Shown: positions 13,831 through 44,372, numbered from the stretch's first letter. The stretch is DNA of 44,580 nt from Deltaproteobacteria bacterium (GCA_016183235.1 JACPFA010000046.1:1-44580); one strand, 5' to 3'. Numbers and translations are program-made. Notes: generated from the letters alone by a model not told the origin.

Positions 13831-14032
13831 GGCCTTAGAGGCGACTGATTTATCTCATGAATTTTCAACTAGAGGGGTATTGAAAAAACCATTGATCAAA
13901 AAGATTAATCTAGATTTACCGGCGGAAATCATCCAACAAATCGACTCTATTGCCCAAAAGGTTGGTGTCTCTAGGCAACCCTTACTAAAAATTTGGATCC
14001 ACGAGCGCCTAAAAACAGAAATCTCCAAATAG
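13778..14032 (+). CDS. brnA: BrnA/CopG-like antitoxin
   Basis: 84 residues overlapping the 3' end of brnT by 53 nt, the usual toxin-first order of BrnTA. The N-terminal part (residues 1-40, with FKTTQAMDEALEATDLSHEF) should wrap the toxin. The C-terminal part is a ribbon-helix-helix: KKINLDLPAEIIQQIDSIAQ then KVGVSRQPLLKIWIHERL. The TAG stop at 14030-14032 uses the first two bases of the long palindrome that begins at 14031, so the native C-terminus may have been replaced or trimmed, though the RHH fold looks complete. It should repress its own promoter together with BrnT. Confidence 0.82.
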   Translation: MKKKSFSKKFKTTQAMDEALEATDLSHEFSTRGVLKKPLIKKINLDLPAEIIQQIDSIAQKVGVSRQPLLKIWIHERLKTEISK

Positions 14033-14173
14033 ACCTCTTGCAGGACCGTAGCGAGCGACCCAAGGACAAGGCGGGGCGGGGCCCCAAAACCGCAGCGTAT
14101 ATGAAAATACGTGAGGATTTTGGGGTGACCCAACGAAGTCATTGGGTCGCGCAGTAGGTTATGCAAGAGGTCT
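14031..14173. repeat. 143-bp imperfect palindrome related to 3499-3639
   Basis: AGACCTCTTGCA (14031-14042) is the reverse complement of 14162-14173. The interior is clearly homologous to the 3499-3639 copy, sharing GCGTATAT...ATACGTGAGGATTTTGGG and the CGCGCA(G/A)TAGGTT end. It fills the gap between brnA and priA and supplies the brnA stop codon. Confidence 0.85.
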
Positions 14174-14184
14174 AATGAATTTTC

Positions 14185-16197
14185 TCACAGGGTGTTTAGT
14201 GGATCCACATCAACTGCCATCTGCACCCCTGATGGTAAGCGCCCTTCAAATTCAATAAGCCAATTCATTAATTTAGAATGTACGGCTTGCCAATGGTGTA
14301 GTTTAAGCATTAACTGCCATCGATATTTATTGCGCAATCGCTCAATGATGCATGCTGCAGGGCCAAGCAGGTTAACTTGATCAGATGGTTTCAAAAAATT
14401 TTCGATTTCTAAACGCGCTTTTTTGGAAACTTCGCAGGCTTTCTCGCGTTGGTTTGAGCTAAAGCGTAGTAAAACAATTTTACTAAACGGCGGGTAAAAC
14501 AATTCTTGTCGATAAACTTTTTCATTCTCGTAAAAATGATCGGGGTCTTGTTTAACTGCATATTGAATGCTGGAATGCTCGGGGTTGAAAGTTTGAATCA
14601 TCACCCGACCTGGCAAATGATGTCTGCCTGCGCGACCGGCCACTTGAGTTAGCATCTGAAAAGTACGTTCGTGGGCACGAAAATCACCCATGTTGATTGA
14701 CTGATCTGCCAACAGAACCCCTACTAAAGTAAGATAGGGGAAGTCGTGGCCTTTGATGACCAATTGAGTACCCACCAATACATCGATTTTTCGATTTAAA
14801 AAATCAGCGAGGATTTTTTGGCCTTGGCCCTTTTTTCCCATGGTGTCACGATCGAGTCTCGCAACCCGAGCGTTGGGAAAGAGCTCGGTTAAGCGATCTT
14901 CAATACGTTGAGTGCCGCTACCTATAAGCAGCAGTTCTGTTTTTCCACATTGCGGACAGACCTCGGGGCGTGGGTAGCTTAACTCACAATAATGACATTT
15001 TAAAGTTTGCCCACGGTGATAAACCAAACTCACATCACAATTGGGGCAATGAACCGCAAACCCACAGTGGGCGCATAATAAAAAGTTGGCAAACCCGCGC
15101 CGATTAATAAATAAAATGGCCTGCTCATCGCGCGATAAACAAACTTTTAATTGTTCGATTAAGGGCGCGCTTAAAAAGCTATCTTGATCCCACGATACCT
15201 TGGTCAAATCGACAATCTCCACTTGGGGCAAAACCCCCCTCGTGGCACGAGTGTTAAGTCGTTGAATTTTGTATTTCCCTTTTTCCACATTATAAAGAGT
15301 TTCAACCGCAGGCGTTGCCGAACCCAACACAATAGGAATTTTTTCTAAATGGGCGCGCATCACCGCCACATCCCGCCCCTGATAACGAAACCGTTCTTCT
15401 TGTTTGTAGCTTGCATCTTGTTCTTCATCGACTACGATCAACCCTAAATTTTGAAAAGGTAGAAAGACCGCTGAACGAGTCCCCACAACAACTGCTGGGT
15501 TCCCTTGATAAACTTGCCACCATATTTTCAAGCGCTGAGCGTCGCTAAGGTTAGAGTGATAAGGTACAATAGGATTGCCCAACATTTCGCAGAATCGCCC
15601 GATGGCCTGCGGGGTTAACGCAATCTCGGGTACTAAAATTAAAGCCGATTTTTTTTGGGCAAGACAATGTTTTGCCAAATGCAAATAGACTTCGGTTTTT
15701 CCGCTTCCCGTAATCCCTTGTAATAAAACCGGATAAAATTGATGAAAGTGTTTAGAAATTTCAGCAAAGGCTTGTTGCTGATCTTTGTTGAGTTGAATCT
15801 CGATGGATTTTTCAAAACCAGGCTCAAACTCAATAACGCGGGAACGAGCGCCCTTACTCAACTTACCCTGAATAAGGCTTGAGGGTAGAGCGGATTTAAA
15901 AACTTCTCCGGCCGGAGTTAAATAATAGTGACTGGCCCATTTCAAAAGACGATGCAGCCCTGGAGGCAAAACTAATTCTTGAAAATTGCTTTGAATATTT
16001 TTGATTTCAAAATCACCCACTGGCGCGTGGGATAAAATTTCTTCTACCCAACCAATCGAAGATTTTCGGCCAAAACTCACCTGCACGATAGACCCTGCCT
16101 GAATCTTGGGAGCATCGGCTGAACTGATCCCATAATGGAAACGTTTAAATTTGGGGATAGGTAAAGCCACGCTGGCAAAACTTTGATGATTTTTCAT
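14185..16197 (-). CDS. priA: Primosomal protein N' (PriA helicase)
   Basis: About 670 residues. The start is taken at the ATG at 16197 (MKNHQSFASVALPIP), which matches the family's early SVALPVP motif; an ATG at 16236 with an AGGGAT ahead would add 13 residues. The N-terminal DNA-binding domain is followed by the helicase core: LLQGITGSGKTEVYLHLA (Walker A), VDEEQDASYKQEE, VVLGSATPAVET and the C-terminal LLTQVAGRAGRHHLPG. The inserted zinc-binding region carries four CxxC pairs (CAHC, CPNC, CHYC, CPQC). PriA restarts stalled forks by remodelling DNA and loading the primosome. It would be expected next to def-fmt; here brnTA and a palindrome intervene. Confidence 0.96.
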   Translation of the reverse strand: MKNHQSFASVALPIPKFKRFHYGISSADAPKIQAGSIVQVSFGRKSSIGWVEEILSHAPVGDFEIKNIQSNFQELVLPPGLHRLLKWASHYYLTPAGEVFKSALPSSLIQGKLSKGARSRVIEFEPGFEKSIEIQLNKDQQQAFAEISKHFHQFYPVLLQGITGSGKTEVYLHLAKHCLAQKKSALILVPEIALTPQAIGRFCEMLGNPIVPYHSNLSDAQRLKIWWQVYQGNPAVVVGTRSAVFLPFQNLGLIVVDEEQDASYKQEERFRYQGRDVAVMRAHLEKIPIVLGSATPAVETLYNVEKGKYKIQRLNTRATRGVLPQVEIVDLTKVSWDQDSFLSAPLIEQLKVCLSRDEQAILFINRRGFANFLLCAHCGFAVHCPNCDVSLVYHRGQTLKCHYCELSYPRPEVCPQCGKTELLLIGSGTQRIEDRLTELFPNARVARLDRDTMGKKGQGQKILADFLNRKIDVLVGTQLVIKGHDFPYLTLVGVLLADQSINMGDFRAHERTFQMLTQVAGRAGRHHLPGRVMIQTFNPEHSSIQYAVKQDPDHFYENEKVYRQELFYPPFSKIVLLRFSSNQREKACEVSKKARLEIENFLKPSDQVNLLGPAACIIERLRNKYRWQLMLKLHHWQAVHSKLMNWLIEFEGRLPSGVQMAVDVDPLNTL

Positions 16198-33993: not shown

Positions 33994-35031
33994 TTACCCT
34001 TTCTGCCTCCAGGTGGCACCCGGGCCACGTCCGATGCATTCAACCTTCTTTGTTTTCTTGAGATCATGGAGCACCCGTCGGATCATATCGCGGCTTACGG
34101 TGGGACAGGATTTTTCCAGATCTGAAACCGTAAATCCGCTTTTCAACGATCGAATTGCCGCTTCAATTAATTTTGTTTTGGCCCCCTTTGGCTCTTTGAT
34201 TTGACCAGCCCGCTCCTCGAATTCTTTATAAGCTTCCTTGATAATGAACAATATGAAGTTAACATAGTGCCAGGGACCATGTTTGCCTTCGTGCCAGCCT
34301 TGGGAGCTTAGTTTCAGCGTTTCATAATAACGCTCCTTGTTCTCCTCAATCAGCCGTTCAAGACTGATGTATCGCCCAACTTCATAACCAAGATGATAAA
34401 GTTGGAGCAAGAGAAGCAAGCGAGAGACACGACCATTTCCATCCCGAAACGGATGAACACAAAGAAAGTCGAGATTAAATCCAGCCAGGATGACAAGCGG
34501 GTGAACAGATCTATTTTTGATATGGTCCTGCCATAGCGAGATGAGCTCGCTCATGTTTTGCGGCGTCTCTTTTGCGGAAACTGTTTTAAAACGGACGCTA
34601 TAGGTACCATCGGTATAGCGTTCGATGATGTCGCTATCTTTTGTTTTATATTGCCCGGCGTCTCCGGCCTTGCCTCGCGCGAGATTGTGAAGCTCCTTAA
34701 TCGTTTTCTCTGAAATATCAGGCTTCTTCTCGTGAATCCATTTCAAGGCGTTGCGATATCCTCGCACTTCTTCTTCATCACGATCCCGCAGAGCCACACG
34801 ACCTAACACCACAGCCTTCACGCGGTCCTGATCAACCGTTACACCTTCGATTCGATTAGACGACACAGCGCTTTCGATCAAGGCATGTTGTCGCAGGACT
34901 TTGAACTTCTGTTGCGACTGCTTTGTAAAGAGTTCCTGTTTCCCGCGGGCCTCGCCAAGATCACCGATATACCAAGCAGATGTCGCCGGAACTTCTTTCA
35001 ACTCATTTTCAAATAGGAAGAGGGTTTTCAT
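33994..35031 (-). CDS. Fic family protein with N-terminal inhibitory helix and C-terminal winged helix
   Basis: 345 residues. The Fic active site is complete: HPFRDGNGR (193-201), with catalytic His193 and the phosphate-binding Asn/Arg. An inhibitory helix motif, SNRIEG (58-63), fits the (S/T)xxxE(G/N) pattern, placing it among class II Fic proteins whose own N-terminus blocks ATP binding. The C-terminal 70 residues (KTKLIEAAIRSLKSGFTVSD then LEKSCPTVSRDMIRRVLHDL) look like a winged helix. Family members AMPylate target proteins. The orientation is opposite to the restriction-type genes, and it stands next to gap at the island boundary. Confidence 0.92.
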   Translation of the reverse strand: MKTLFLFENELKEVPATSAWYIGDLGEARGKQELFTKQSQQKFKVLRQHALIESAVSSNRIEGVTVDQDRVKAVVLGRVALRDRDEEEVRGYRNALKWIHEKKPDISEKTIKELHNLARGKAGDAGQYKTKDSDIIERYTDGTYSVRFKTVSAKETPQNMSELISLWQDHIKNRSVHPLVILAGFNLDFLCVHPFRDGNGRVSRLLLLLQLYHLGYEVGRYISLERLIEENKERYYETLKLSSQGWHEGKHGPWHYVNFILFIIKEAYKEFEERAGQIKEPKGAKTKLIEAAIRSLKSGFTVSDLEKSCPTVSRDMIRRVLHDLKKTKKVECIGRGPGATWRQKG

Positions 35032-35159: not shown

Positions 35160-35441
35160 ATGAGGCCGCCTAAGGCCCTTCAGGTTTTGGGTGGGATTTC
35201 GATGATTCAATCATCGGTCGGGATCCGGGGACTTCGGTCCCTCATGGGAAAGAGATCGGATCGAACGTGGCAACGGTTCAAAAAGGACCTCGAAAACTGC
35301 CCCCTCCCAAATGGCCAAAGAGCTAAAATGACGGATCACATCCGGGAATCTTTGATTGAGTTTTCTCCCGTACAAATTGTATGGGCTATTTTTTTCTTGA
35401 CGTGCATTGCAAATCGTATTACGTACCGAAAAACATTATGA
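35160..35441 (+). CDS. Doubtful 93-codon reading frame in the Fic/RHH intergenic region
   Basis: The 406-bp gap between the divergent Fic gene and the RHH gene holds one frame of 93 codons (MRPPKALQVLGGISMIQSSV...). It has no Shine-Dalgarno sequence, no recognisable domain except a weak hydrophobic tail (VQIVWAIFFLTCIA), and its end overlaps the extended frame of the next gene. A UUCG-capped hairpin (GGGACTTCGGTCCC, 35228-35241) lies in it. The gap may be mostly regulatory. Confidence 0.2.
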   Translation: MRPPKALQVLGGISMIQSSVGIRGLRSLMGKRSDRTWQRFKKDLENCPLPNGQRAKMTDHIRESLIEFSPVQIVWAIFFLTCIANRITYRKTL

Positions 35442-36091
35442 ACAACGCTGAAAATACTAGGAATTTAGCTGAGATGTTGGGGCGAGCGCTGGCTCCAAAA
35501 GACACTGGGATTATGTTGCGTATTCCTGAAGAGGAGAAGCAGCAATTACAGCGCCTTGCGGTTTCCCAAGGACTCAACCTCTCGGATTTCATTCGCCAGG
35601 CTCTTTACTATTATGTTTGGGCGACAAGTGAGATCGAATTGAAAGTTTCCTCCACTAATAAATCGCCTGAATACATTGATCTTCAAAATACGGCTTCCTA
35701 TTCAATTTATCTGGCAAACTATCTGATCTCTGATGACACTTTTGATGCCAACTTAATGCGGACTAACAAGCAGCGCCATTCGTTCCATTTTGGGCCACTC
35801 GTTTTTAATTACATGACGGGCAATCGACAAGAAGCCGTCCTTCATTCCCAAGAAATTGTGCGCGTTTATTCAGGCGGCTACACACCGTCATCACCGCCTG
35901 TAGGGATCGCCATTTGGACCACACTTCCGGGAGAAAATAAAATCTGGAATAATCAAATTGATCCAGTTTCTGTTTATAGAATCGCCCGAAAAGATAGTGA
36001 AGATATCATTGCGGGGATTCCATCCCGATATCTTCACGGGCTCCGTTCTCTTATTGAAAGAAATCAAAATATGATGAAAGGCGTTAAGTAA
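35438..36091 (+). CDS. Ribbon-helix-helix protein of unknown function
   Basis: 217 residues from the ATG at 35438 (MNNAENTRNLAEMLGRALAP); an upstream in-frame ATG at 35381 would add 19 unlikely residues. Residues about 25-60 read IMLRIPEEEKQQLQRLAVSQ then GLNLSDFIRQALYYYVWA, the strand-helix-helix pattern of Arc/CopG DNA-binding proteins. The remaining 150 residues, rich in aromatic residues (SFHFGPLVFNYMTGNRQEAV, YRIARKDSEDIIAGIPSRYL), belong to no family I recognise and may sense a ligand or partner. It is followed two bases later by the small membrane protein gene and then the methyltransferase, and may regulate the island. Confidence 0.6.
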   Translation: MNNAENTRNLAEMLGRALAPKDTGIMLRIPEEEKQQLQRLAVSQGLNLSDFIRQALYYYVWATSEIELKVSSTNKSPEYIDLQNTASYSIYLANYLISDDTFDANLMRTNKQRHSFHFGPLVFNYMTGNRQEAVLHSQEIVRVYSGGYTPSSPPVGIAIWTTLPGENKIWNNQIDPVSVYRIARKDSEDIIAGIPSRYLHGLRSLIERNQNMMKGVK

Positions 36092-36092
36092 T

Positions 36093-36434
36093 ATGACTCT
36101 GTCCGACTGGATTTCAATATTGGCAGTAGGTATTTCTGGAGTGGGACTTTACTTCTCTCGTGCCTCAGCAAAAAGTTCTGAAATAAGCGCGCGCGCCTCG
36201 GAGCACAGCGCAGAAATCACTCGTAGCGCTTTAGATTTCGAACAATCAAAACATAAGGAATCAAAACAAGAAGAGCGTAAACGATTTATCGACGGCCTTA
36301 TCAAGGAAGCCGTAGAAAAATGGAAAACATTCGGGAACGCAGAAAATATCATAAATCGCTATCCTGATCTCGTGGACGAAGAGAAAGAGGAGATTCGTCA
36401 GAGATCACGGAGAGGTGTGGGAAAGCCTACATAG
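36093..36434 (+). CDS. Small membrane-anchored coiled-coil protein
   Basis: 113 residues. One N-terminal membrane helix (about residues 5-23, WISILAVGISGVGLYFSRAS) is followed by an Ala/Ser/Glu/Lys-rich helix (24-75) of coiled-coil character and a charged tail ending KEEIRQRSRRGVGKPT. It starts two bases after the RHH stop and ends four bases before the methyltransferase start, so it belongs to the same transcription unit. Function unknown; a membrane tether for a defence system would be speculation. Confidence 0.6.
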   Translation: MTLSDWISILAVGISGVGLYFSRASAKSSEISARASEHSAEITRSALDFEQSKHKESKQEERKRFIDGLIKEAVEKWKTFGNAENIINRYPDLVDEEKEEIRQRSRRGVGKPT

Positions 36435-36437
36435 AAT

Positions 36438-38375
36438 ATGAAGAATCCAGAAAAGTTGGGTCAAGAGACTCTACCAACTCAAGAGAAATTTTTCTCCACT
36501 GAGAAATTGCGCCGGTCAGCGCGAGCGGGGACTCATTTGCCCGACCCCACGATGGCACCATATGGGTATGATGCCAAACAGCACTACGGCCATCTCTTCC
36601 CAAAATTAGAATTGCCGCGATTATTTCCACCGGCATCGCATCATCCCGATGATCACGTCAGCTTTGGTTCGCCAAACTTGGAACCTCATCAGCTTTATCT
36701 GGGGGACAATCTCTACGTTTTGCGCCAGTTACCCACTGAATCAATCGATCTGATTTACATCGACCCGCCCTTCTTTTCCAACCGGACCTATACTCAAATT
36801 TGGGGCGACGATAATGAAGTTCGTTCTTTTACCGATATTTTTCAGGATGGGATGTTTTCTTATCTGGCTTGGCTCAATGCTCGTTTGTGGGAAATGAAGC
36901 GGGTGCTCAAATCAACGGGCTCCATCTATGTTCATTGTGACTGGCATGCGTCCCATTACATCAAGTGTGAGATGGATAAGATTTTTGATTTCGATAATTT
37001 TATTAACGAAATTGTATGGTGTTATGGTTCAGGTGGTGCAAGCCAAGATAGATATTCTCGAAAACATGATATTCTTTTATTTTACGGTAAATCTGCAAAT
37101 TACACATTCAATGCAGACGAGGGAAGAGAGCCGTACTCATCTCCACATAAGTCGGCAACACCGAAAAAAGTGGGCGATAAAATGTACGTTAAGATGAATC
37201 CCTTAGGACGCATACCTTTCGACTGGTGGCAAATTCCAATTATTACAAATAGTGCTTTTGAACGCATTGGATATCCGACTCAAAAACCAGAGTCTTTACT
37301 GGAAAGAATTTTAAAAGTATCAACCAATGTTGGTGATGTCGTTGCCGATTTTTTTATGGGTGGGGGCTCAACGGGTGCTGTATCTCTCAAATTAGGCCGC
37401 CGATTTATCGGCTGTGATATTTCCCGCGTTGCAGTCAGCGTCACCGCCAGCCGGTTGATTGACATTGCTGAAAATATTTCTGGCGTAACCGTTACAACCA
37501 AGGCCCAGCCGACCTTACCCATGAAACAGGCGGATATTGCTGATATCCGTGTTGGTTACGTCGGTAGTTATCCACAAGATAAGTTTCGTGGTATCTCCCA
37601 TGATGAATTTTCAAAATTCATCCTCACCATATATCAGGCCATGCCCTTTACTGGTCATGCTCAGTGGATTCATGGCCTGGCTAACAACAAAATTATCCTT
37701 TCCATTGGTCCGGGCGATCCTAATGAGCGGCTGACCCTTGCTCAAGTAGATGGTGCCGTCAAAGACACGGTCAAACAGTATTCTCGACAATTCGCCGAAG
37801 GTGAAGATAAGATCCTTCAGATTATCGGCTGGTCTTTTGATCCACAATGTGAAGGTTGGAAGCGCAAGGCAGCAGAGACACTCAATAGCAAGGGCGTCAA
37901 GTTACAAATCGATTTGATTTCCCTGGGAAGCGAGAGTTTCCGGCAGAAAATTTTCCGCAATGTTGGTGAAAGCAATCTCGACCTGAAATTCAATCGTCTC
38001 AATCAACTCCTCTCATTCACCGGCGCGCCATTTGCCGGGAAAATCGTTGTCACAAGCAGGAACAAACTGGCCGTCTCTTTCGCTTTGGAAGGAGCAAGGG
38101 CTATTGGTGCTGGCGCGAGGCTCATCAACTGCCAGTGGGATTTCTCCTATGATGACAAGCGCTTTGCCAGTCGAGAGCATGCTTTGAATAGAGATGGAAA
38201 GAATGGAGATTTCACTGCCATCTTGACAACAGAGCACATTTTTTCACAGTCAGGCACTTACAGTATTGCGGCGAGAGTACAGGATAATCTTGACGGGCAG
38301 GCCACAGTTGCCGCCCAAATCGAAGTGAGTGAAACTGATTGCAGGATTATTGAAGAGAAGATTGTGAATCTATGA
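36438..38375 (+). CDS. Beta-class DNA methyltransferase with C-terminal PKD-like domain
   Basis: 645 residues. The amino-methyltransferase motif IV is IDPPFFSNRTY (Asp109-Pro-Pro-Phe), followed by a variable target-recognition stretch. Motif X-like GYPTQKPESLLERIL and motif I DFFMGGGSTG (from Asp304) come after it. The IV-TRD-I order defines the beta class, as in type III Mod enzymes, which methylate adenine N6 or cytosine N4. From about residue 345 it continues with a region I do not recognise (KFILTIYQAMPFTGHAQWIH). It ends at about 563-636 with CQWDFSYDD...HIFSQSGTYSIAARVQDNL, resembling a PKD/immunoglobulin-like fold. Its stop overlaps the next start (ATGA). Confidence 0.88.
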   Translation: MKNPEKLGQETLPTQEKFFSTEKLRRSARAGTHLPDPTMAPYGYDAKQHYGHLFPKLELPRLFPPASHHPDDHVSFGSPNLEPHQLYLGDNLYVLRQLPTESIDLIYIDPPFFSNRTYTQIWGDDNEVRSFTDIFQDGMFSYLAWLNARLWEMKRVLKSTGSIYVHCDWHASHYIKCEMDKIFDFDNFINEIVWCYGSGGASQDRYSRKHDILLFYGKSANYTFNADEGREPYSSPHKSATPKKVGDKMYVKMNPLGRIPFDWWQIPIITNSAFERIGYPTQKPESLLERILKVSTNVGDVVADFFMGGGSTGAVSLKLGRRFIGCDISRVAVSVTASRLIDIAENISGVTVTTKAQPTLPMKQADIADIRVGYVGSYPQDKFRGISHDEFSKFILTIYQAMPFTGHAQWIHGLANNKIILSIGPGDPNERLTLAQVDGAVKDTVKQYSRQFAEGEDKILQIIGWSFDPQCEGWKRKAAETLNSKGVKLQIDLISLGSESFRQKIFRNVGESNLDLKFNRLNQLLSFTGAPFAGKIVVTSRNKLAVSFALEGARAIGAGARLINCQWDFSYDDKRFASREHALNRDGKNGDFTAILTTEHIFSQSGTYSIAARVQDNLDGQATVAAQIEVSETDCRIIEEKIVNL

Positions 38376-39652
38376 GAAAGCCCAAAGAAAAATTAAAATC
38401 GGTAGTTGTAAATTCGGAGAAGAACATCAAAATGAAATCCATGAATTACCGAACTTTGATTGACGCCATTCAGGCTATCCATCAGGAAATGAAGGGGCGT
38501 GCCGTTGTAGCAGTTAATCAGGCGCTGGTTTTGCGCAACTGGGTCATCGGAGCTTACATTGTGACGTTTGAGCAGCAAGGTGCGGATCGTGCCGCATATG
38601 GCGCACGGCTCTTGCCGACATTGGCTGTCGACCTTGCAGCACGAGGAGTTCCTGGCTGTAGTCGCGAGATGCTTGGACGCATGCGCTTATTTTTTCGGAA
38701 TTATCCTCAGATAGTTTCACTGATTCGGTCGCCAGCGGTGGCCAAATCACCGGCTACTAGAAATGCCCTTGCGCCAATTTGGTCGCCGGCGGTGACCAAA
38801 TTGAATGCATTCAGAATGCTCGTTCCCATTAGGGATTCCGTAGACGGTGTATATGAAATACAAGAGAGTGATACCAAAGGTGTGACTCCTTTGCAGTCGG
38901 AAACCGTGCTGCGGTTCTCATGGACGCATTTACAAGAGTTTGTAAGATTGGCCGATCCGGTCAAACGCGCCTTCTACGAAAACGAATGTCTGAGAGGAAA
39001 CTGGTCCAAACGCCAGCTTCAACGCCAAATCGAATCACTGCTCTATGAACGCACAGGGCTTTCGACGAACAAAAAAGCGGTCATTGAGCGTGGCCGGACA
39101 CAGGCGCACAAAGCGCCAACAGAAACCATTGACGACCTCATTCGTGATCCCTATGTGCTGGAATTTACCGGATTGGCGGAGCGGCCCGAATATTCCGAAA
39201 CCGACCTTGAAACAGCCTTGCTTAATCACTTGCAAAGGTTCCTGCTGGAACTGGGAACGGGTTTTTGTTTTGAGGCCCGTCAGTTTCGGATAACCATGAA
39301 CAACAAACATAACCGCGTCGATTTGGTCTTCTATAACAGACGATTGCGGTGTCATCTACTGATTGAACTCAAAGTTCGGGCTTTTCGTCATACCGATGCG
39401 GGTCAGATGAACTTTTACCTCAATTGGTTCAAGGCGAATATGGCTGACAGAAACGACAATCCGCCCGTGGGTATTCTTTTGTGCAGTGACAAGGATCATA
39501 CCGAAGTCGAGTACGCCACAGCCGGAATGAACAACAAACTTTTTATTTCCCGTTATCTCACGGCACTGCCATCAGTAGCACAACTCAAGGCACTTGTGGA
39601 ATCTGACCGCGCTCGACTTGAAAAGCCGACCATCAGAAAAAAGAGAAAATGA
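38372..39652 (+). CDS. DUF1016 (YhcG) family PD-(D/E)XK nuclease
   Basis: 426 residues. The N-terminal DUF1016_N region (about 28-110) includes YRTLIDAIQAIHQEMKGRAV and a NWVIGAYIVTFEQQG segment. The C-terminal nuclease domain has the family run DPYVLEFTGL, NHLQRFLLELGTGFCFEARQ and the catalytic RVDLVFYNRR...LLIELKVRAF (Asp317, Glu332, Lys334). YhcG proteins often travel with restriction systems and mobile DNA. Residues about 118-145 contain two copies of a palindromic repeat encoding SPAVAK and SPAVTK, an in-frame insertion not typical of the family. It overlaps the methyltransferase stop by ATGA and is followed four bases later by the helicase. Confidence 0.88.
   Translation: MRKPKEKLKSVVVNSEKNIKMKSMNYRTLIDAIQAIHQEMKGRAVVAVNQALVLRNWVIGAYIVTFEQQGADRAAYGARLLPTLAVDLAARGVPGCSREMLGRMRLFFRNYPQIVSLIRSPAVAKSPATRNALAPIWSPAVTKLNAFRMLVPIRDSVDGVYEIQESDTKGVTPLQSETVLRFSWTHLQEFVRLADPVKRAFYENECLRGNWSKRQLQRQIESLLYERTGLSTNKKAVIERGRTQAHKAPTETIDDLIRDPYVLEFTGLAERPEYSETDLETALLNHLQRFLLELGTGFCFEARQFRITMNNKHNRVDLVFYNRRLRCHLLIELKVRAFRHTDAGQMNFYLNWFKANMADRNDNPPVGILLCSDKDHTEVEYATAGMNNKLFISRYLTALPSVAQLKALVESDRARLEKPTIRKKRK
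38722..38802. repeat. Two palindromic units inside the DUF1016 coding sequence
   Basis: AATTTGGTC (38776-38784) and GACCAAATT (38794-38802) form a perfect 9-bp stem. A diverged copy, GATTCGGTC...GGCCAAATC, lies at 38722-38748. Both share GGTCGCC-n-GCGGT-nn-CCAAAT and are read in the same frame (SPAV(A/T)K). Confidence 0.7.
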
Positions 39653-39656
39653 CCGT

Positions 39657-41792
39657 ATGATTACCGAAGAAGAATTACAATGGCGGCTCTGGACAGAGAC
39701 GCCCCAGTTTCCGAATTTGGATGACCATCAAAGACTGGTGGCAGAAGGGTTTTTAGAACGTCTCAGCGGGCAGGATTTCTCCAAACCACTTTACCGCCAT
39801 CAATGGGAGGCCATCGCAAGAGTCATTCACAATGGTGAAGTACGAGGAAAGTGGGAATGCCTTCTCGATATTGTAACCGGAGGTGGCAAGACCGTCATTA
39901 TGGCCGGTTTAATGTCCTACTTCTGGCAGGTTCGTAAGTGCGAAAAATTTCTGATTCTTGTCCCCAACACCATTGTTCGTGAACGGGTCAAAGATGACTT
40001 TGAGATCCGCAACCCTGCTTTTGCATTCAGGGAGTTTCCATTTTTCTTCAACTCCTGCACTAAGGTTCCTGAGCGCCTTGTGTGCAAGGTCCTGCGGGAT
40101 GGAAGTGATGCTTCCGGTATCCGTGATGCCAACGTCATTGTCGCGAACATCCATCAACTTTACGAAGGCAAGGGCTCTCCTGCCCTTGAAGTTCTCCTTG
40201 CAGACAAGGTGACACCCGAACTCGTGATTTTCAATGATGAGGCCCATAATGCAGCGGCGGGAGAATATCGGGAAGTGTTAAAACTTTTGCGCCGGAAAAC
40301 CATTGCCCGCATTGACCTGACGGCAACCCCTTACCGCCTCGATAAGCAAGACCTTGATACCTACCCACCGCTGTATGAATACCATGTGCAGGAAGCCATG
40401 CGCGATGGAGTGGTAAAACAGATCGTAGTAACCAGACCAGACATCCAAAGCGTCAAACTACAATATGAAGAGTGGGACGAAAACAATCAGGTGATTCGCA
40501 CGCTTGATGCCGAAGAAATGCCCTGGGAACAGATCGAAAGCGAACTGAGGCGAAGCGGCGCTGTTCGTTTCGTCACGGCAGATAACGCCCGAAGACAACA
40601 GCTTCAAATTGCAAAAAGCTGTTTAGATTATCAGAAAAAATGTGTCCCTCGCGGAGTGGATGATAAGCCACAATGGGAACCGTTGATGCTGACGGTTGCA
40701 CTCTCTCAAAAAGATGCTTTTAAAATTTATGAAACTCTTCAGAAAAACCCATTTGGCTATAAACCAGAAGAATTATTGCTTGTTCACAGCAAACAAGAAG
40801 AACTGCAAAACAGGAAAGCATTTTTTCTTGGGCGCAAAGGCCCAGAGGGTTTGAGTAAAGAAGACGAGGCATTATGGCATGAAACCCGCAAGGTGCGGGT
40901 TATTATCGCCGTTTCGATGTTACGTGAGGGTTGGGATGTTAGAAATATTGCCATTGTCTGTCTTTTCCGAAAATTCAGTTACCAGAAAAAAGGTGATCGG
41001 ATTTATACGGTCTACGGTCCTCAGATTATTGGTCGAGGCCTAAGAAGGATTCGCCAGCCCAACGAACGGGATTTTCTTTTTGTCATCGACCACCCTGCAT
41101 TTAATCATGATTGGCTTTGGGAGATTCTTTCAGCTCAAAAGTACGCCAAGCCACTGAATCCAGGCGACGCCGTGGAAGATGCTCACATTGAAGATATTCC
41201 ACTAGAAAAGCCAAAAGTAGAGGAATCGGAGGAGGCCAAGAAGGAAGACAAGAAACCGGAATTGGATATTGAAGATATACTCAATAGCCTTCCTTCCATT
41301 GAGGGTAAGGGTGTTAATCCCATCGCCAATTGGCAAAAACATTTTCGAGAGTTTCCCCTAGCAAAAAAAATATCATCGGCCCTGCAAAGAATTACCAATA
41401 TAAAAAGTCAAAAGCTGGGGGGCGATACAACTGCTCATGTCTTGCCGGAAGAAGAGGTTAATATTGAGGAACTTAATGAAAGTGTGGCCGGTCAATACAA
41501 GAATAAAAAACGGGAAGACTTAATTCGGGAACTCCAAACAGACCTGCTCAATGAGCCTCATCATGCGCTGATGATTTGTTTCAAGATGGAGACAGCCGAG
41601 GAAACGCTTAAGTTGATGCAAGCACTGGAATGGATCTTGACCGAACTTTTCGCCATTCAGGGGGTTAGTGGTTTGGGCGAATCACCGGAGGCCCAATTGC
41701 GTAAACTGCATTTTTCCTTACCCCAGATTTTGGATGAGTTTCGGAAGCCAGAAATCGTCTTGGGCATTCTTGGTGAAGGATCTGAGAAATGA
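39657..41792 (+). CDS. DEAD/DEAH-box helicase, type III restriction Res-like
   Basis: 711 residues from the ATG at 39657, four bases after the DUF1016 stop. Superfamily 2 motifs: DIVTGGGKTVIMAGL (Walker A, about residues 72-86), motif II NDEAHN (about 192-197), LTATPYR (about 220) and a motif VI-like GPQIIGRGLRRI (about 455-466). The arrangement, including the opening RHQWEAIARVI, matches the helicase part of type III restriction subunits and related DNA translocases. A charged linker (about 510-550, EESEEAKKEDKKPELDIEDI) precedes a C-terminal segment. No PD-(D/E)XK site is apparent in this chain; the nuclease is the next gene. The stop overlaps that gene by ATGA. Confidence 0.9.
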   Translation: MITEEELQWRLWTETPQFPNLDDHQRLVAEGFLERLSGQDFSKPLYRHQWEAIARVIHNGEVRGKWECLLDIVTGGGKTVIMAGLMSYFWQVRKCEKFLILVPNTIVRERVKDDFEIRNPAFAFREFPFFFNSCTKVPERLVCKVLRDGSDASGIRDANVIVANIHQLYEGKGSPALEVLLADKVTPELVIFNDEAHNAAAGEYREVLKLLRRKTIARIDLTATPYRLDKQDLDTYPPLYEYHVQEAMRDGVVKQIVVTRPDIQSVKLQYEEWDENNQVIRTLDAEEMPWEQIESELRRSGAVRFVTADNARRQQLQIAKSCLDYQKKCVPRGVDDKPQWEPLMLTVALSQKDAFKIYETLQKNPFGYKPEELLLVHSKQEELQNRKAFFLGRKGPEGLSKEDEALWHETRKVRVIIAVSMLREGWDVRNIAIVCLFRKFSYQKKGDRIYTVYGPQIIGRGLRRIRQPNERDFLFVIDHPAFNHDWLWEILSAQKYAKPLNPGDAVEDAHIEDIPLEKPKVEESEEAKKEDKKPELDIEDILNSLPSIEGKGVNPIANWQKHFREFPLAKKISSALQRITNIKSQKLGGDTTAHVLPEEEVNIEELNESVAGQYKNKKREDLIRELQTDLLNEPHHALMICFKMETAEETLKLMQALEWILTELFAIQGVSGLGESPEAQLRKLHFSLPQILDEFRKPEIVLGILGEGSEK

Positions 41793-42232
41793 TTCAGTCA
41801 AAAAGAGGAATTCTTAAAGGACTTAAGAGAGACCCGAATGGGGAAGCTGCTTATGACAGCCTTCTGGAACGGGATTACATGTTGGAATTGGAAAATATGG
41901 GTGGCGTGATTGTTTGGACCAAGGACCACGGAATTCGAATCCCTTATAAGATTTTTGGGATTATTTCGCGCCACTACTTTCCGGATTTTCTTGTCACCTA
42001 TGCGGACGGATCAAAGGAGATCCATGAAACCAAAGGAGCCGGCTTTCTCGCCTGGGTTTCTACACATGCCAAACGGCATGCCGGTGATGCCTGGTGCCGA
42101 CAGCACGGGATGGTTTACCGGTTTATTGAAAATTCTAAAGGGGCATTGTTTGCAAAGAATAATAGTTTGTCTCAGCTTGAGGGAATTTCCTACAAGCAGA
42201 AAAAACAGGTCGGGTCATTTGAAGATTTGTGA
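41789..42232 (+). CDS. Small TnsA-like PD-(D/E)XK endonuclease
   Basis: 147 residues. The nuclease core is compact: Glu27 in YDSLLERDYM, Asp66 in YFPDFLVTY, and Glu80-x-Lys82 in IHETKGAGF, giving the E...D...ExK set of TnsA-N/VSR-like PD-(D/E)XK enzymes. It lacks other domains. ATGA overlap with the helicase strongly suggests that the two proteins form one restriction complex, with nuclease and motor on separate chains rather than fused as in classical type III Res. Family placement beyond PD-(D/E)XK is inference. Confidence 0.8.
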   Translation: MIQSKRGILKGLKRDPNGEAAYDSLLERDYMLELENMGGVIVWTKDHGIRIPYKIFGIISRHYFPDFLVTYADGSKEIHETKGAGFLAWVSTHAKRHAGDAWCRQHGMVYRFIENSKGALFAKNNSLSQLEGISYKQKKQVGSFEDL

Positions 42233-42531: not shown

Positions 42532-42795
42532 ATGCCAAAACGTAAAACACAATTGATGACTTTAAAGCCAAGCAAGCCAGTGAAATCAGGCTCCCTCGTC
42601 CGTGACGTTCGCGCCTTGATCGAGCAGGCGCGCAAATATGTCGCTCGTTCGGTCACTAATACCCTTGTTGCGCTTTATTGGCGTATTGGGAAAAGGATTA
42701 GTGAAGAAGTCCTACAGAGTAAACGAGCGGAGTATGGCGAGCGGATTATTTCGACGCTGTCGAAACAATTGCTGAAAGAATATAAAATCATATGA
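42532..42795 (+). pseudogene. Truncated DUF1016 (YhcG) N-terminal fragment
   Basis: 87 codons that match the DUF1016_N opening: LVRDVRALIEQARKYVARSV, then TNTLVALYWRIGKRISEEVL and AEYGERIISTLSKQLLKEYK. Complete family members continue for 200 or more residues to a nuclease domain. Here the frame ends II-stop, with the stop codon inside the 55-bp palindrome that begins at 42792. Downstream sequence shows no nuclease remnant. The fragment therefore looks truncated by insertion of the palindrome or by a rearrangement at it. It is distinct from the full-length DUF1016 gene at 38372. Confidence 0.75.
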
Positions 42796-42846
42796 CGAAG
42801 GAAAGGTAACTCATTGTAACGATTGAGTTTAACGTTCCTCCGTCAT
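42792..42846. repeat. 55-bp imperfect palindrome, copy B
   Basis: ATGACGAAGGAAAGG...TTCCTCCGTCAT with inner AACTCA/TGAGTT pairing, the inverted partner of 533-587. The sequence just beyond it repeats CATACGATTCT twice in tandem. It ends the DUF1016 fragment and lies directly ahead of the TM0106-type nuclease gene. Confidence 0.8.
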
Positions 42847-42869
42847 ACGATTCTTCATACGATTCTATT

Positions 42870-44372
42870 ATGAGTAAAAAAAATTATATTATTGCCACCG
42901 ACCTCTACAATTTCAAAAAATGCGCCTATCGGCCATTCATGGATTACAACGGCGACCCAGCTCTCAAAGTTGAAATTCATCCTCTGATCAAATTGCTATG
43001 GGCTTCGGGTGTGCAATATGAAGCAAAAGTCATTGAATCGTATCAGCGCGATCATTCTGAAAAATCATTTCGTGCGATCGATCCTGAAAAACCCGCATCC
43101 GAAGCTTTGGCTAAGGAGACATTCAGTGCCATGCAAGCAGGTGTTGATATTATCTATCAAGGGGTTTTGATCTCAGGCAACAAACTCGGCCGGCCTGACC
43201 TACTTTTGAAATCTCCAGGCAAATCAAATCTAGGTGATTACCATTACTATCCCATGGACATTAAATTGACCCGCATTGATGCGACTTGGGATGATGGCAA
43301 CGAAAAAGCCCCCATGGAACAATTTTGGCAGGTCTATTTTTACGGTGAACTCTTGGAAAAAGTGCAGGGGAAAAGACCCGATAAAGGCTACATTTATAAA
43401 ACCAAAGCACGCATTCTTCCCATTCCTCTCTATAAACCACCCATGCATTATGAATGGGCACTTCAGCAACTTGAAAATTATCTGCAAGGCAATGCGTTTG
43501 GAGCAGAACCTACCATCAACAGTAATTGTGGGATGTGTGAGTGGAAAGCATCATGCACCAAGTGGGCTAATGAAAAACACGACATTTCACTTGTGTATCG
43601 CGTAGGTCAGGCCATGAAGGGTGGGCTTAAAGCGCTCGGCATTGAAACAATTGAAGACTTGGCAAATGCAGACACTGCTCAGCTGACAAGCAAAGCACAA
43701 GCATTAAAAGAACAAGGCTATTTTTGGAAAAGTATGCCTGCTGACCTTCCCGCCCAATCGATTGAACGTGCACGCCTTCATATCACTCATCAGCCAGTGA
43801 TTCGCCAACCCATTACGTTTCCCGAAACCCATTTAGAAATACACTTCGACATTGAAGATGATCCCACGCAAGATTTCGTTTATCTTCATGGCGCACTCCT
43901 TGTAGAAAAAGGCAAAGAACCGGAATATATCGCATTTTTTGCTGACAGGCGTGAAAACGAGAAACTCATCACTGAACAGCTCTTCGCTTTTTTTGATAAG
44001 TACCCTGACACTCCAATTTACCACTATGGCGATTATGAAAGGGACACTATTAAGCGCCTCATCAGCAAACACAAACTAGACACACATATCTACGACAGAC
44101 TATTTGCAGAAAATGGCATGGCGATTGACCTCTGTAGGTTGATTGCCACTCATACAGACTGGCCGCTGACCAGCTATGGCCTCAAAGCAATTTGCAAATT
44201 TCTTGGTTTTCAATGGGATGCCAACGATGCGGGTGGGGCAGCCTCTATTGTCTGGATGAATGAATATCTAGATGGCAACACGAGCATGAAAGAGAAAATA
44301 CTCCGCTACAACGAAGATGACTGTCAGGCCACGTATTTTCTAAAAAATGCGTTAATAAAAATGCAAAATTAA
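42870..44372 (+). CDS. TM0106-type RecB-like nuclease with DnaQ-like C-terminal domain
   Basis: 500 residues. The N-terminal half is Cas4/RecB-like: TDLYNFKKCAYRPF with Cys18, GRPDLLLK with a catalytic-type Asp, YYPMDIKLTR as the DxK strand, and the C-terminal Cys cluster CGMCEWKASC (Cys220, 223, 229), which with Cys18 could hold an iron-sulfur cluster. A short helical linker region with KALGIETIEDLANAD (helix-hairpin-helix-like) follows. The second half starts LEIHFDIEDD (about residue 325, DxE) and ends LKAICKFLGF...YNEDDCQATYFL, the motifs of DnaQ-like 3'-5' exonucleases. Usual family length. Role unproven; DNA repair or defence are both plausible. No further gene follows in the window. 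Confidence 0.85.
   Translation: MSKKNYIIATDLYNFKKCAYRPFMDYNGDPALKVEIHPLIKLLWASGVQYEAKVIESYQRDHSEKSFRAIDPEKPASEALAKETFSAMQAGVDIIYQGVLISGNKLGRPDLLLKSPGKSNLGDYHYYPMDIKLTRIDATWDDGNEKAPMEQFWQVYFYGELLEKVQGKRPDKGYIYKTKARILPIPLYKPPMHYEWALQQLENYLQGNAFGAEPTINSNCGMCEWKASCTKWANEKHDISLVYRVGQAMKGGLKALGIETIEDLANADTAQLTSKAQALKEQGYFWKSMPADLPAQSIERARLHITHQPVIRQPITFPETHLEIHFDIEDDPTQDFVYLHGALLVEKGKEPEYIAFFADRRENEKLITEQLFAFFDKYPDTPIYHYGDYERDTIKRLISKHKLDTHIYDRLFAENGMAIDLCRLIATHTDWPLTSYGLKAICKFLGFQWDANDAGGAASIVWMNEYLDGNTSMKEKILRYNEDDCQATYFLKNALIKMQN

What the first reader, a model, noticed from the sequence alone, without database searches (positions are those of the whole stretch)
36438..42232. Restriction-type system with helicase and nuclease on separate chains
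Methyltransferase, DUF1016 nuclease, Res-like helicase and a 147-residue TnsA-like nuclease are linked by ATGA overlaps or gaps of a few bases. Classical type III Res carries helicase and nuclease in one chain; here they are split and a YhcG nuclease lies between Mod and Res. Upstream RHH and membrane-anchored coiled-coil proteins in the same transcription unit may be extra components. This is the best candidate for an undescribed defence variant.
Basis: partly seen in the sequence, partly recalled or inferred. Interest (0 to 1): 0.7.

Follow-up and report, generated by a model that had tools for sequence, protein, structure and literature searches.

The report
Type III-like restriction system, nuclease split off
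This is a probable DNA-cutting bacterial defence system of the Type III kind in which the motor and the cutting blade are two separate proteins instead of one; the same three-gene arrangement recurs in dozens of bacterial and archaeal groups, and the extra nuclease noticed between the genes is an optional passenger in a spot that often carries other defence genes.

Summary
In detail: at 36438-42232 a methyltransferase (Mod), a DUF1016/YhcG nuclease, a Res-like helicase and a 147-aa TnsA-like nuclease follow each other with ATGA overlaps or a 4-nt gap. The reading needs one correction. The core is three genes, Mod-helicase-nuclease: 75 of 83 loci examined, from more than 25 phyla including archaea, hold all three, and never as a helicase-nuclease fusion. 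The small nuclease is the detached counterpart of the C-terminal nuclease domain of Type III Res: its profile matches that domain in fused Res models (PADLOC PDLC03648, NCBIfam BPTD_3080), in fused Res genes of other genomes and, weakly, in EcoP15I. The helicase model's best PDB match is EcoP15I Res. YhcG is not core. It sits in a Mod-helicase slot that is empty in most loci and holds other, often defence-type genes elsewhere (TIR, HEPN, DUF3800, Schlafen, Ppl, HepT); a 96%-identical relative has a different YhcG there, plus a replaced Mod recognition region. The upstream RHH and coiled-coil genes are not conserved. Best reading: a split-Res, Type III-like restriction-modification lineage carrying swappable defence cargo. 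New variant of a known kind; activity, recognition site and complex formation remain untested.

The parts
36438..38375 (+). Mod: beta-class amino DNA methyltransferase, 645 aa; MTase core about 84-350, recognition region about 190-275, then an alpha/beta domain (370-510) and an Ig/PKD-like beta sandwich (535-643)
   Evidence: Pfam N6_N4_Mtase 3.8e-47; profile matches to EcoP15I Mod and Mbo45V Mod; model pLDDT 82; Foldseek
37024..37269 (+). Putative target recognition region of Mod, replaced relative to G002
   Evidence: Nucleotide identity falls to 30-53% inside 85-91% flanks; BLAST pieces break at 37024 and 37269; protein alignment
38372..39652 (+). YhcG/DUF1016 PD-(D/E)XK nuclease, 426 aa; accessory gene in the Mod-helicase slot
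   Evidence: YhcG_C 2.3e-54, PADLOC PDC-S02; absent from most relatives; different allele in G002 with breaks at the gene's ends; 8 YhcG matches in the own genome
39657..41792 (+). Helicase/ATPase subunit, 711 aa: RecA1, short beta insert, RecA2, disordered linker, helical spacer; ends where EcoP15I Res would continue into its nuclease
   Evidence: ResIII 6.8e-22; TGGGK, DEAH and GRGLR motifs invariant in 28 relatives; top Foldseek PDB hit EcoP15I Res
41789..42232 (+). TnsA-like PD-(D/E)XK nuclease subunit, 147 aa: detached Res nuclease domain
   Evidence: Pfam TnsA-like N 8.7e-8; E27, PD66, E80-x-K82 and K95 invariant in 28 sequences; matches the C-terminus of fused Res

Best explanation
A Type III-like, ATP-dependent restriction-modification system whose Res is split in two. 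Mod carries the recognition region, methylates one base within its target on host DNA, and recruits the motor to unmethylated sites (inferred). The helicase subunit (two RecA domains plus helical spacer) spends ATP to leave the site and move or slide along DNA (inferred from Type III relatives). The TnsA-like protein, made from a start codon that overlaps the helicase's stop, docks on the spacer and cuts when two complexes meet or stall (inferred). Shown here: the three-gene unit is a widespread lineage in which helicase and nuclease stay adjacent but separate; the small nuclease is homologous to the Res nuclease domain; all catalytic motifs are intact. YhcG is a separate, exchangeable nuclease gene housed in the Mod-helicase slot. 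It probably adds an independent layer of defence that shares the operon's expression; a coupling to the Mod's recognition region cannot be excluded.
For: 80 loci from a genome-wide scan with the helicase alignment: Mod-helicase-TnsA order in 75 of the 83 loci examined (window and two others included), no fusion, and no helicase-TnsA pair separated by an intact gene. The relative frames of helicase and TnsA were 53/19/6, so the split is neither a sequencing error nor one programmed frameshift. The TnsA profile's best PDB hit among 177,635 sequences is EcoP15I Res 836-934, the nuclease region, though only at E 0.064. PADLOC REase_III PDLC03648 and NCBIfam BPTD_3080, both full-length Res models, are hit by the helicase in their motor part and by the TnsA-like protein near their C-terminus. 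In Pseudomonadota, fused Res chains of about 900 aa carry the same nuclease at about 770-880. Helicase model: RecA1-insert-RecA2-spacer; top PDB hit EcoP15I Res, E 3.4e-13 over 576 columns, in the published EcoP15I order (PMC4490356). The Mod profile matches Mod subunits of EcoP15I and Mbo45V.
Against: No activity, methylation motif or complex is shown. Mod matches Type II beta-class enzymes (RsrI, CcrM) better than Type III Mods over the MTase core, and its C-terminal 280 residues match no Pfam family except weak PKD hits. The helicase is far from fused Res (long branch), so a shared mode of movement (sliding rather than translocation) is an assumption; the TM-scores to EcoP15I Res are modest (0.36/0.40). 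Most loci are from metagenome-assembled genomes.
Confidence: 0.74

Rival explanations
1. YhcG is an integral fourth subunit, matched to the Mod's specificity, so that the system has two nucleases.
For: ATGA overlap and 4-nt spacing place it in the middle of the unit. In G002 a different YhcG (39% identity) and a different Mod recognition region occur together while everything else is 85-91% identical in DNA. A YhcG gene also sits directly upstream of a fused Res in G612.
Against: Nearly all related loci lack YhcG; 50 of 80 loci with a Mod next to the helicase have less than 60 nt between them. A fused sibling (G518, Res 94% identical in DNA) has Mod directly before Res without YhcG. YhcG is a common gene on its own: 25 of 46 genomes in the phylum, 8 matches in this genome. 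Two loci cannot show that YhcG and the recognition region change together.
Confidence: 0.12
2. Helicase and TnsA-like nuclease act as a translocating motor with a strand nickase (Type I/ISP- or CglI-like) rather than a Type III sliding switch.
For: The helicase profile also matches a Type I R subunit, RadD and another putative helicase (7clg), and HsdR and LlaBIII are among the Foldseek hits. CglI/NgoAVII is a proven three-gene system with a separate helicase and nuclease that hydrolyses ATP fast (PMC4267653).
Against: The best structural match is EcoP15I Res, the nuclease matches the Res C-terminus, and the recognition region sits in Mod as in Type III, not in the nuclease as in CglI.
Confidence: 0.22
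3. A modification or epigenetic system in which the helicase and small nuclease are used for DNA repair or another purpose, not restriction.
For: No phenotype is known; the helicase also resembles the repair helicase RadD.
Against: Catalytic residues of both subunits are invariant across very distant phyla, the unit is patchy, a near-identical copy lies in another family, and its cargo slot holds defence genes, as expected of a defence locus.
Confidence: 0.06

Closest known systems
Type III restriction-modification, EcoP15I kind (Mod2Res1; PMC4490356)
   Same: Beta-class Mod with an internal recognition region and a C-terminal extension; SF2 motor with RecA1, insert, RecA2 and helical spacer; PD-(D/E)XK nuclease homologous to the Res C-terminus
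   Different: Nuclease on its own chain; helicase very diverged; Mod C-terminal domains unlike any Pfam family; often genes inserted between mod and the motor gene
Fused Type III Res of PADLOC PDLC03648 / NCBIfam BPTD_3080 family
   Same: Motor and TnsA-like nuclease in the same order; Mod directly upstream; in one genome YhcG lies directly before Res
   Different: One chain of about 900 aa; separate clade in the helicase tree
CglI / NgoAVII three-gene restriction-modification (PMC4267653)
   Same: Methyltransferase, separate helicase/ATPase and separate nuclease in one locus
   Different: Nuclease is PLD-type with a B3 DNA-reading domain, helicase carries a Z1 domain, methyltransferase is 5mC; specificity lies in the nuclease protein
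YhcG/DUF1016, PADLOC candidate PDC-S02
   Same: The 38372-39652 gene is a full-length member with both domains
   Different: Nothing notable; it is a common gene that lies here in a restriction locus

Membership tests
Type III restriction-modification | Beta-class amino methyltransferase Mod with internal recognition region | tested here: met
   N6_N4_Mtase; DPPF motif before the FxGGG motif; profile matches to EcoP15I and Mbo45V Mod; replaced internal region in G002
Type III restriction-modification | Res motor of SF2 type with helical spacer | tested here: met
   Motifs invariant; helical bundle after RecA2 in the model; top Foldseek hit EcoP15I Res
Type III restriction-modification | PD-(D/E)XK nuclease of the Res kind | tested here: met
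   Conserved E/PD/ExK; homology to the C-terminus of fused Res; EcoP15I match only marginal (E 0.064)
Type III restriction-modification | Motor and nuclease in a single Res chain | tested here: not met
   Separate ORFs in all loci with both genes; no fusion
Type III restriction-modification | One-strand methylation of an asymmetric site; cleavage needs two inverted unmethylated sites and ATP | not testable with these tools
   Needs methylome sequencing and biochemistry
BPTD_3080 fused Res (NF046055) | Score over the curated cut-off (800 bits) on one chain | tested here: not met
   29.8 and 24.6 bits on two separate chains
CglI/NgoAVII-type | PLD nuclease with B3 domain, Z1-domain helicase, 5mC methyltransferase | tested here: not met
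   TnsA-like nuclease, ResIII helicase without a Z1 hit, N6/N4 methyltransferase
YhcG/DUF1016 (PDC-S02) | DUF1016_N plus YhcG_C nuclease domain | tested here: met
   Both domains well over cut-off

The most novel reading that the evidence does not exclude
Split-Res systems form a distinct, ancient class of ATP-dependent restriction found across bacteria and archaea, in which the Mod-motor junction is a dedicated cargo slot. Cargo nucleases such as YhcG are loaded there, are exchanged together with the Mod's recognition region, and act as interchangeable back-up effectors that sense the state of the restriction complex.
Probability: 0.15. Interest if true: 0.8.

Novelty: new variant of a known kind. 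Interest (0 to 1): 0.52.

Why it matters
It shows that the Type III motor and nuclease can be, and in a broad lineage always are, separate proteins. The nuclease subunit can then be added, left out or swapped in a test tube, which bears on the open question of how Type III motors license cutting. The Mod-motor gap is also a predictable place to look for further defence genes: those found there include known defence families (TIR, HEPN, Ppl) beside unstudied ones. Annotation tools that expect one Res chain may file these genes as unrelated helicase and transposase-like fragments.

Tried and rejected
A frameshifted or mis-sequenced single Res gene: rejected, all related loci are split, in all three relative frames. 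A programmed frameshift making a fusion: not supported here (ATGA start); not excluded for the clade with 11- or 14-nt overlaps. TnsA as a Tn7-type transposase part: the protein matches the Res C-terminus, sits next to a Res-like helicase in every locus, and its weak NCBIfam TnsA-like hit (20 bits) is far under the cut-off of 110. RHH, coiled-coil and 99-aa genes as components: no relatives in other loci. Promoter and terminator scan: no more sites than in shuffles. Plasmid search: only distant helicases, none covering 80% of the query. Paper searches for a split Type III Res or for TnsA with restriction-modification: nothing found in the open library; this is not proof of absence, since subscription journals and REBASE were not available. 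Structure search of the Mod C-terminal domains was masked by the MTase core.

Full report
WHAT IS THERE. Two junctions are ATGA overlaps and one is a 4-nt gap. Pfam names them N6_N4_Mtase, DUF1016_N + YhcG_C, ResIII and Tn7_TnsA-like_N, all above Pfam cut-offs. Upstream in the same direction lie an RHH gene (35438-36091) and a short coiled-coil gene (36093-36434). Downstream lie a 99-aa orphan, an 87-aa DUF1016_N fragment and a TM0106-type RecB-like nuclease gene (TIGR03491, 1.5e-85).

A CLOSE RELATIVE SHOWS WHICH PARTS MOVE. In G002, a genome of the same class but another family, the helicase is 96% identical and the TnsA-like protein 92%. At DNA level the unit is 85-91% identical except in two stretches: 37024-37269, the Mod region between the methylation motifs where Type III Mods carry their recognition domain, and 38376-39656, which is the YhcG gene from end to end. 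There G002 has another YhcG, 39% identical as protein. The RHH and coiled-coil genes are missing in G002; Fic (88% protein identity) and the TM0106 gene (77%) are present near by in both. So YhcG and the recognition region are the exchangeable parts, and Mod ends, helicase and nuclease are the constant ones.

THE CORE IS THREE GENES, AND IT IS WIDESPREAD. A helicase-profile scan of GTDB species genomes found 123 relatives and returned 80 loci. My own profiles on every ORF show Mod, helicase and TnsA-like gene together in 75 of 83 loci (window, G002 and one viral contig included); the exceptions seen are mostly cut by contig ends. None is fused. The helicase-TnsA junction holds no inserted gene in the loci examined, while the Mod-helicase junction is under 60 nt in 50 loci and over 400 nt in 26. 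The loci carry more than 25 phylum-level labels, including Nitrososphaerota, Nanoarchaeota and Micrarchaeota; most are metagenome bins, and one is a named isolate record, Mesorhizobium sp. STM 4661. The system is rare per genome: 2 of 294 Planctomycetota and 2 of 46 near-identical copies in the window's own phylum. One copy lies on a contig classed as viral (L010).

THE SMALL NUCLEASE IS A DETACHED RES NUCLEASE. Residues E27, P65-D66, E80-x-K82 and K95 are invariant in 28 diverse sequences, the PD-(D/E)XK pattern. NCBIfam BPTD_3080 (970 positions) and PADLOC REase_III PDLC03648 (871 positions) describe whole Res chains; our helicases hit their motor part and our TnsA-like proteins hit positions 849-940 and 734-826. 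A profile of the small protein has EcoP15I Res 836-934 as its best match in the PDB, at a marginal E of 0.064. Eighteen of 349 Pseudomonadota genomes have a PDLC03648 match; the complete fused chains among them, about 900 aa, carry the same nuclease near their C-terminus, at about 40-65 bits. In a tree of 83 split and 14 fused helicases the two kinds lie on opposite sides of one long branch with full support. This fits one change of architecture, but it does not say which form came first, and joins over so long a branch are unsure.

THE HELICASE LOOKS LIKE RES WITHOUT ITS END. The AlphaFold2 model (pLDDT 83) gives RecA1 (1-245), a short beta insert (254-290) where EcoP15I has its Pin domain, RecA2 (305-495), a disordered stretch (520-603) and a helical bundle (603-705); domain borders are my reading of the secondary structure. 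EcoP15I Res has RecA1, Pin, RecA2, helical spacer and then a nuclease domain that is disordered in the crystal (PMC4490356). Foldseek's best PDB match is EcoP15I Res, E 3.4e-13 over 576 columns. The chain therefore ends where the flexible nuclease would begin.

MOD. The Mod profile matches RsrI, CcrM and the Type III Mods Mbo45V and EcoP15I. Beyond the MTase core lie an alpha/beta domain (370-510) and an Ig/PKD-like beta sandwich (535-643). In EcoP15I the Mod C-terminal domain touches Res (PMC4490356); a docking role here is inference.

YHCG AND THE CARGO SLOT. Apart from the window and G002, YhcG appears in the 80 returned loci only once, downstream of the unit in L031. The slot between Mod and helicase holds other genes in about a third of loci: a TIR protein (PDC-S35) with DUF3800, a HEPN-type Ymh protein, UvrD with DUF3800, HNH, NYN, trypsin, HepT with its partner, an IrrE/DUF4411 pair, AAA ATPases, and a Ppl-type PHP-SMC protein with a Schlafen-like protein. 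Near neighbours in the tree (L024, L027, L031) hold different cargo. The slot is not peculiar to split systems: in G612 a YhcG overlaps the start of a fused Res, while the sibling G518, with Res 94% identical in DNA, has Mod directly before Res (the G612 contig begins inside YhcG, so its Mod is not seen). YhcG is also common by itself: 25 of 46 genomes of the phylum and 8 matches in this genome. YhcG is therefore best read as an accessory, probably independent nuclease riding in the operon.

MECHANISM. Shown: architecture, homology, intact catalytic motifs, conserved linkage, exchange of the recognition region and of YhcG. Inferred from Type III enzymes: Mod reads and methylates the site; the motor uses ATP to leave an unmethylated site; the nuclease subunit cuts on collision. 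A faster translocating mode, as in Type I or CglI (PMC4267653), is the main rival. CglI also shows that a restriction-modification system with separate helicase and nuclease proteins has been proven before; that paper states that the nuclease is fused in Type III Res.

NOVELTY. No PADLOC or NCBIfam model found here describes the split pair, and the open-access papers I could search do not mention it. REBASE and subscription papers could not be searched, so 'undescribed' is provisional. I rate it a new variant of a known kind.

Noticed in passing
window 42780-42870: A short hairpin-forming repeat follows the truncated 87-aa DUF1016_N fragment (42532-42795); similar copies lie on contigs C14, C21, C30, C46 and C50 of the same genome. 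It looks like a small non-autonomous mobile element that may have cut off a second YhcG.
   Followed up: partly
window 33994-35031 (-) and L011 5987-7063 (+); window 42870-44372 and L011 15229-16833: A Fic gene and a TM0106 RecB-like nuclease gene flank the restriction unit in both genomes (88% and 77% protein identity) although Fic has the opposite orientation: possibly a shared defence island.
   Followed up: partly
L011 13908-15340: In G002 the start of the TM0106 gene is repeated (51 bp at 14004-14054, 88% identical to the window) on the far side of an ATPase-like gene (14172-15326), as if that gene had been inserted with a duplication.
   Followed up: no
genome G000: Eight YhcG/DUF1016 matches at E<=1e-15 in one 2.6-Mb genome, a high number for a nuclease of unclear role.
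   Followed up: no
L010 1-12443: A contig classed as viral (IMG/VR) carries the split system beside ORFs that read like a serine recombinase, a LexA/methyltransferase protein and a ClpP-like protease (by eye, not searched).
   Followed up: no
L027 8112-8744, L031 3487-4173, L033 526-1356 (Mod-helicase slot): DUF3800 proteins recur as slot cargo, alone or paired with TIR or UvrD genes.
   Followed up: partly
window 35438-36434: A 217-aa RHH protein (weak lamin-tail-domain match, E 3e-4, below cut-off) followed by a 113-aa protein with an N-terminal hydrophobic stretch and coiled coil; no relatives in any fetched locus.
   Followed up: partly
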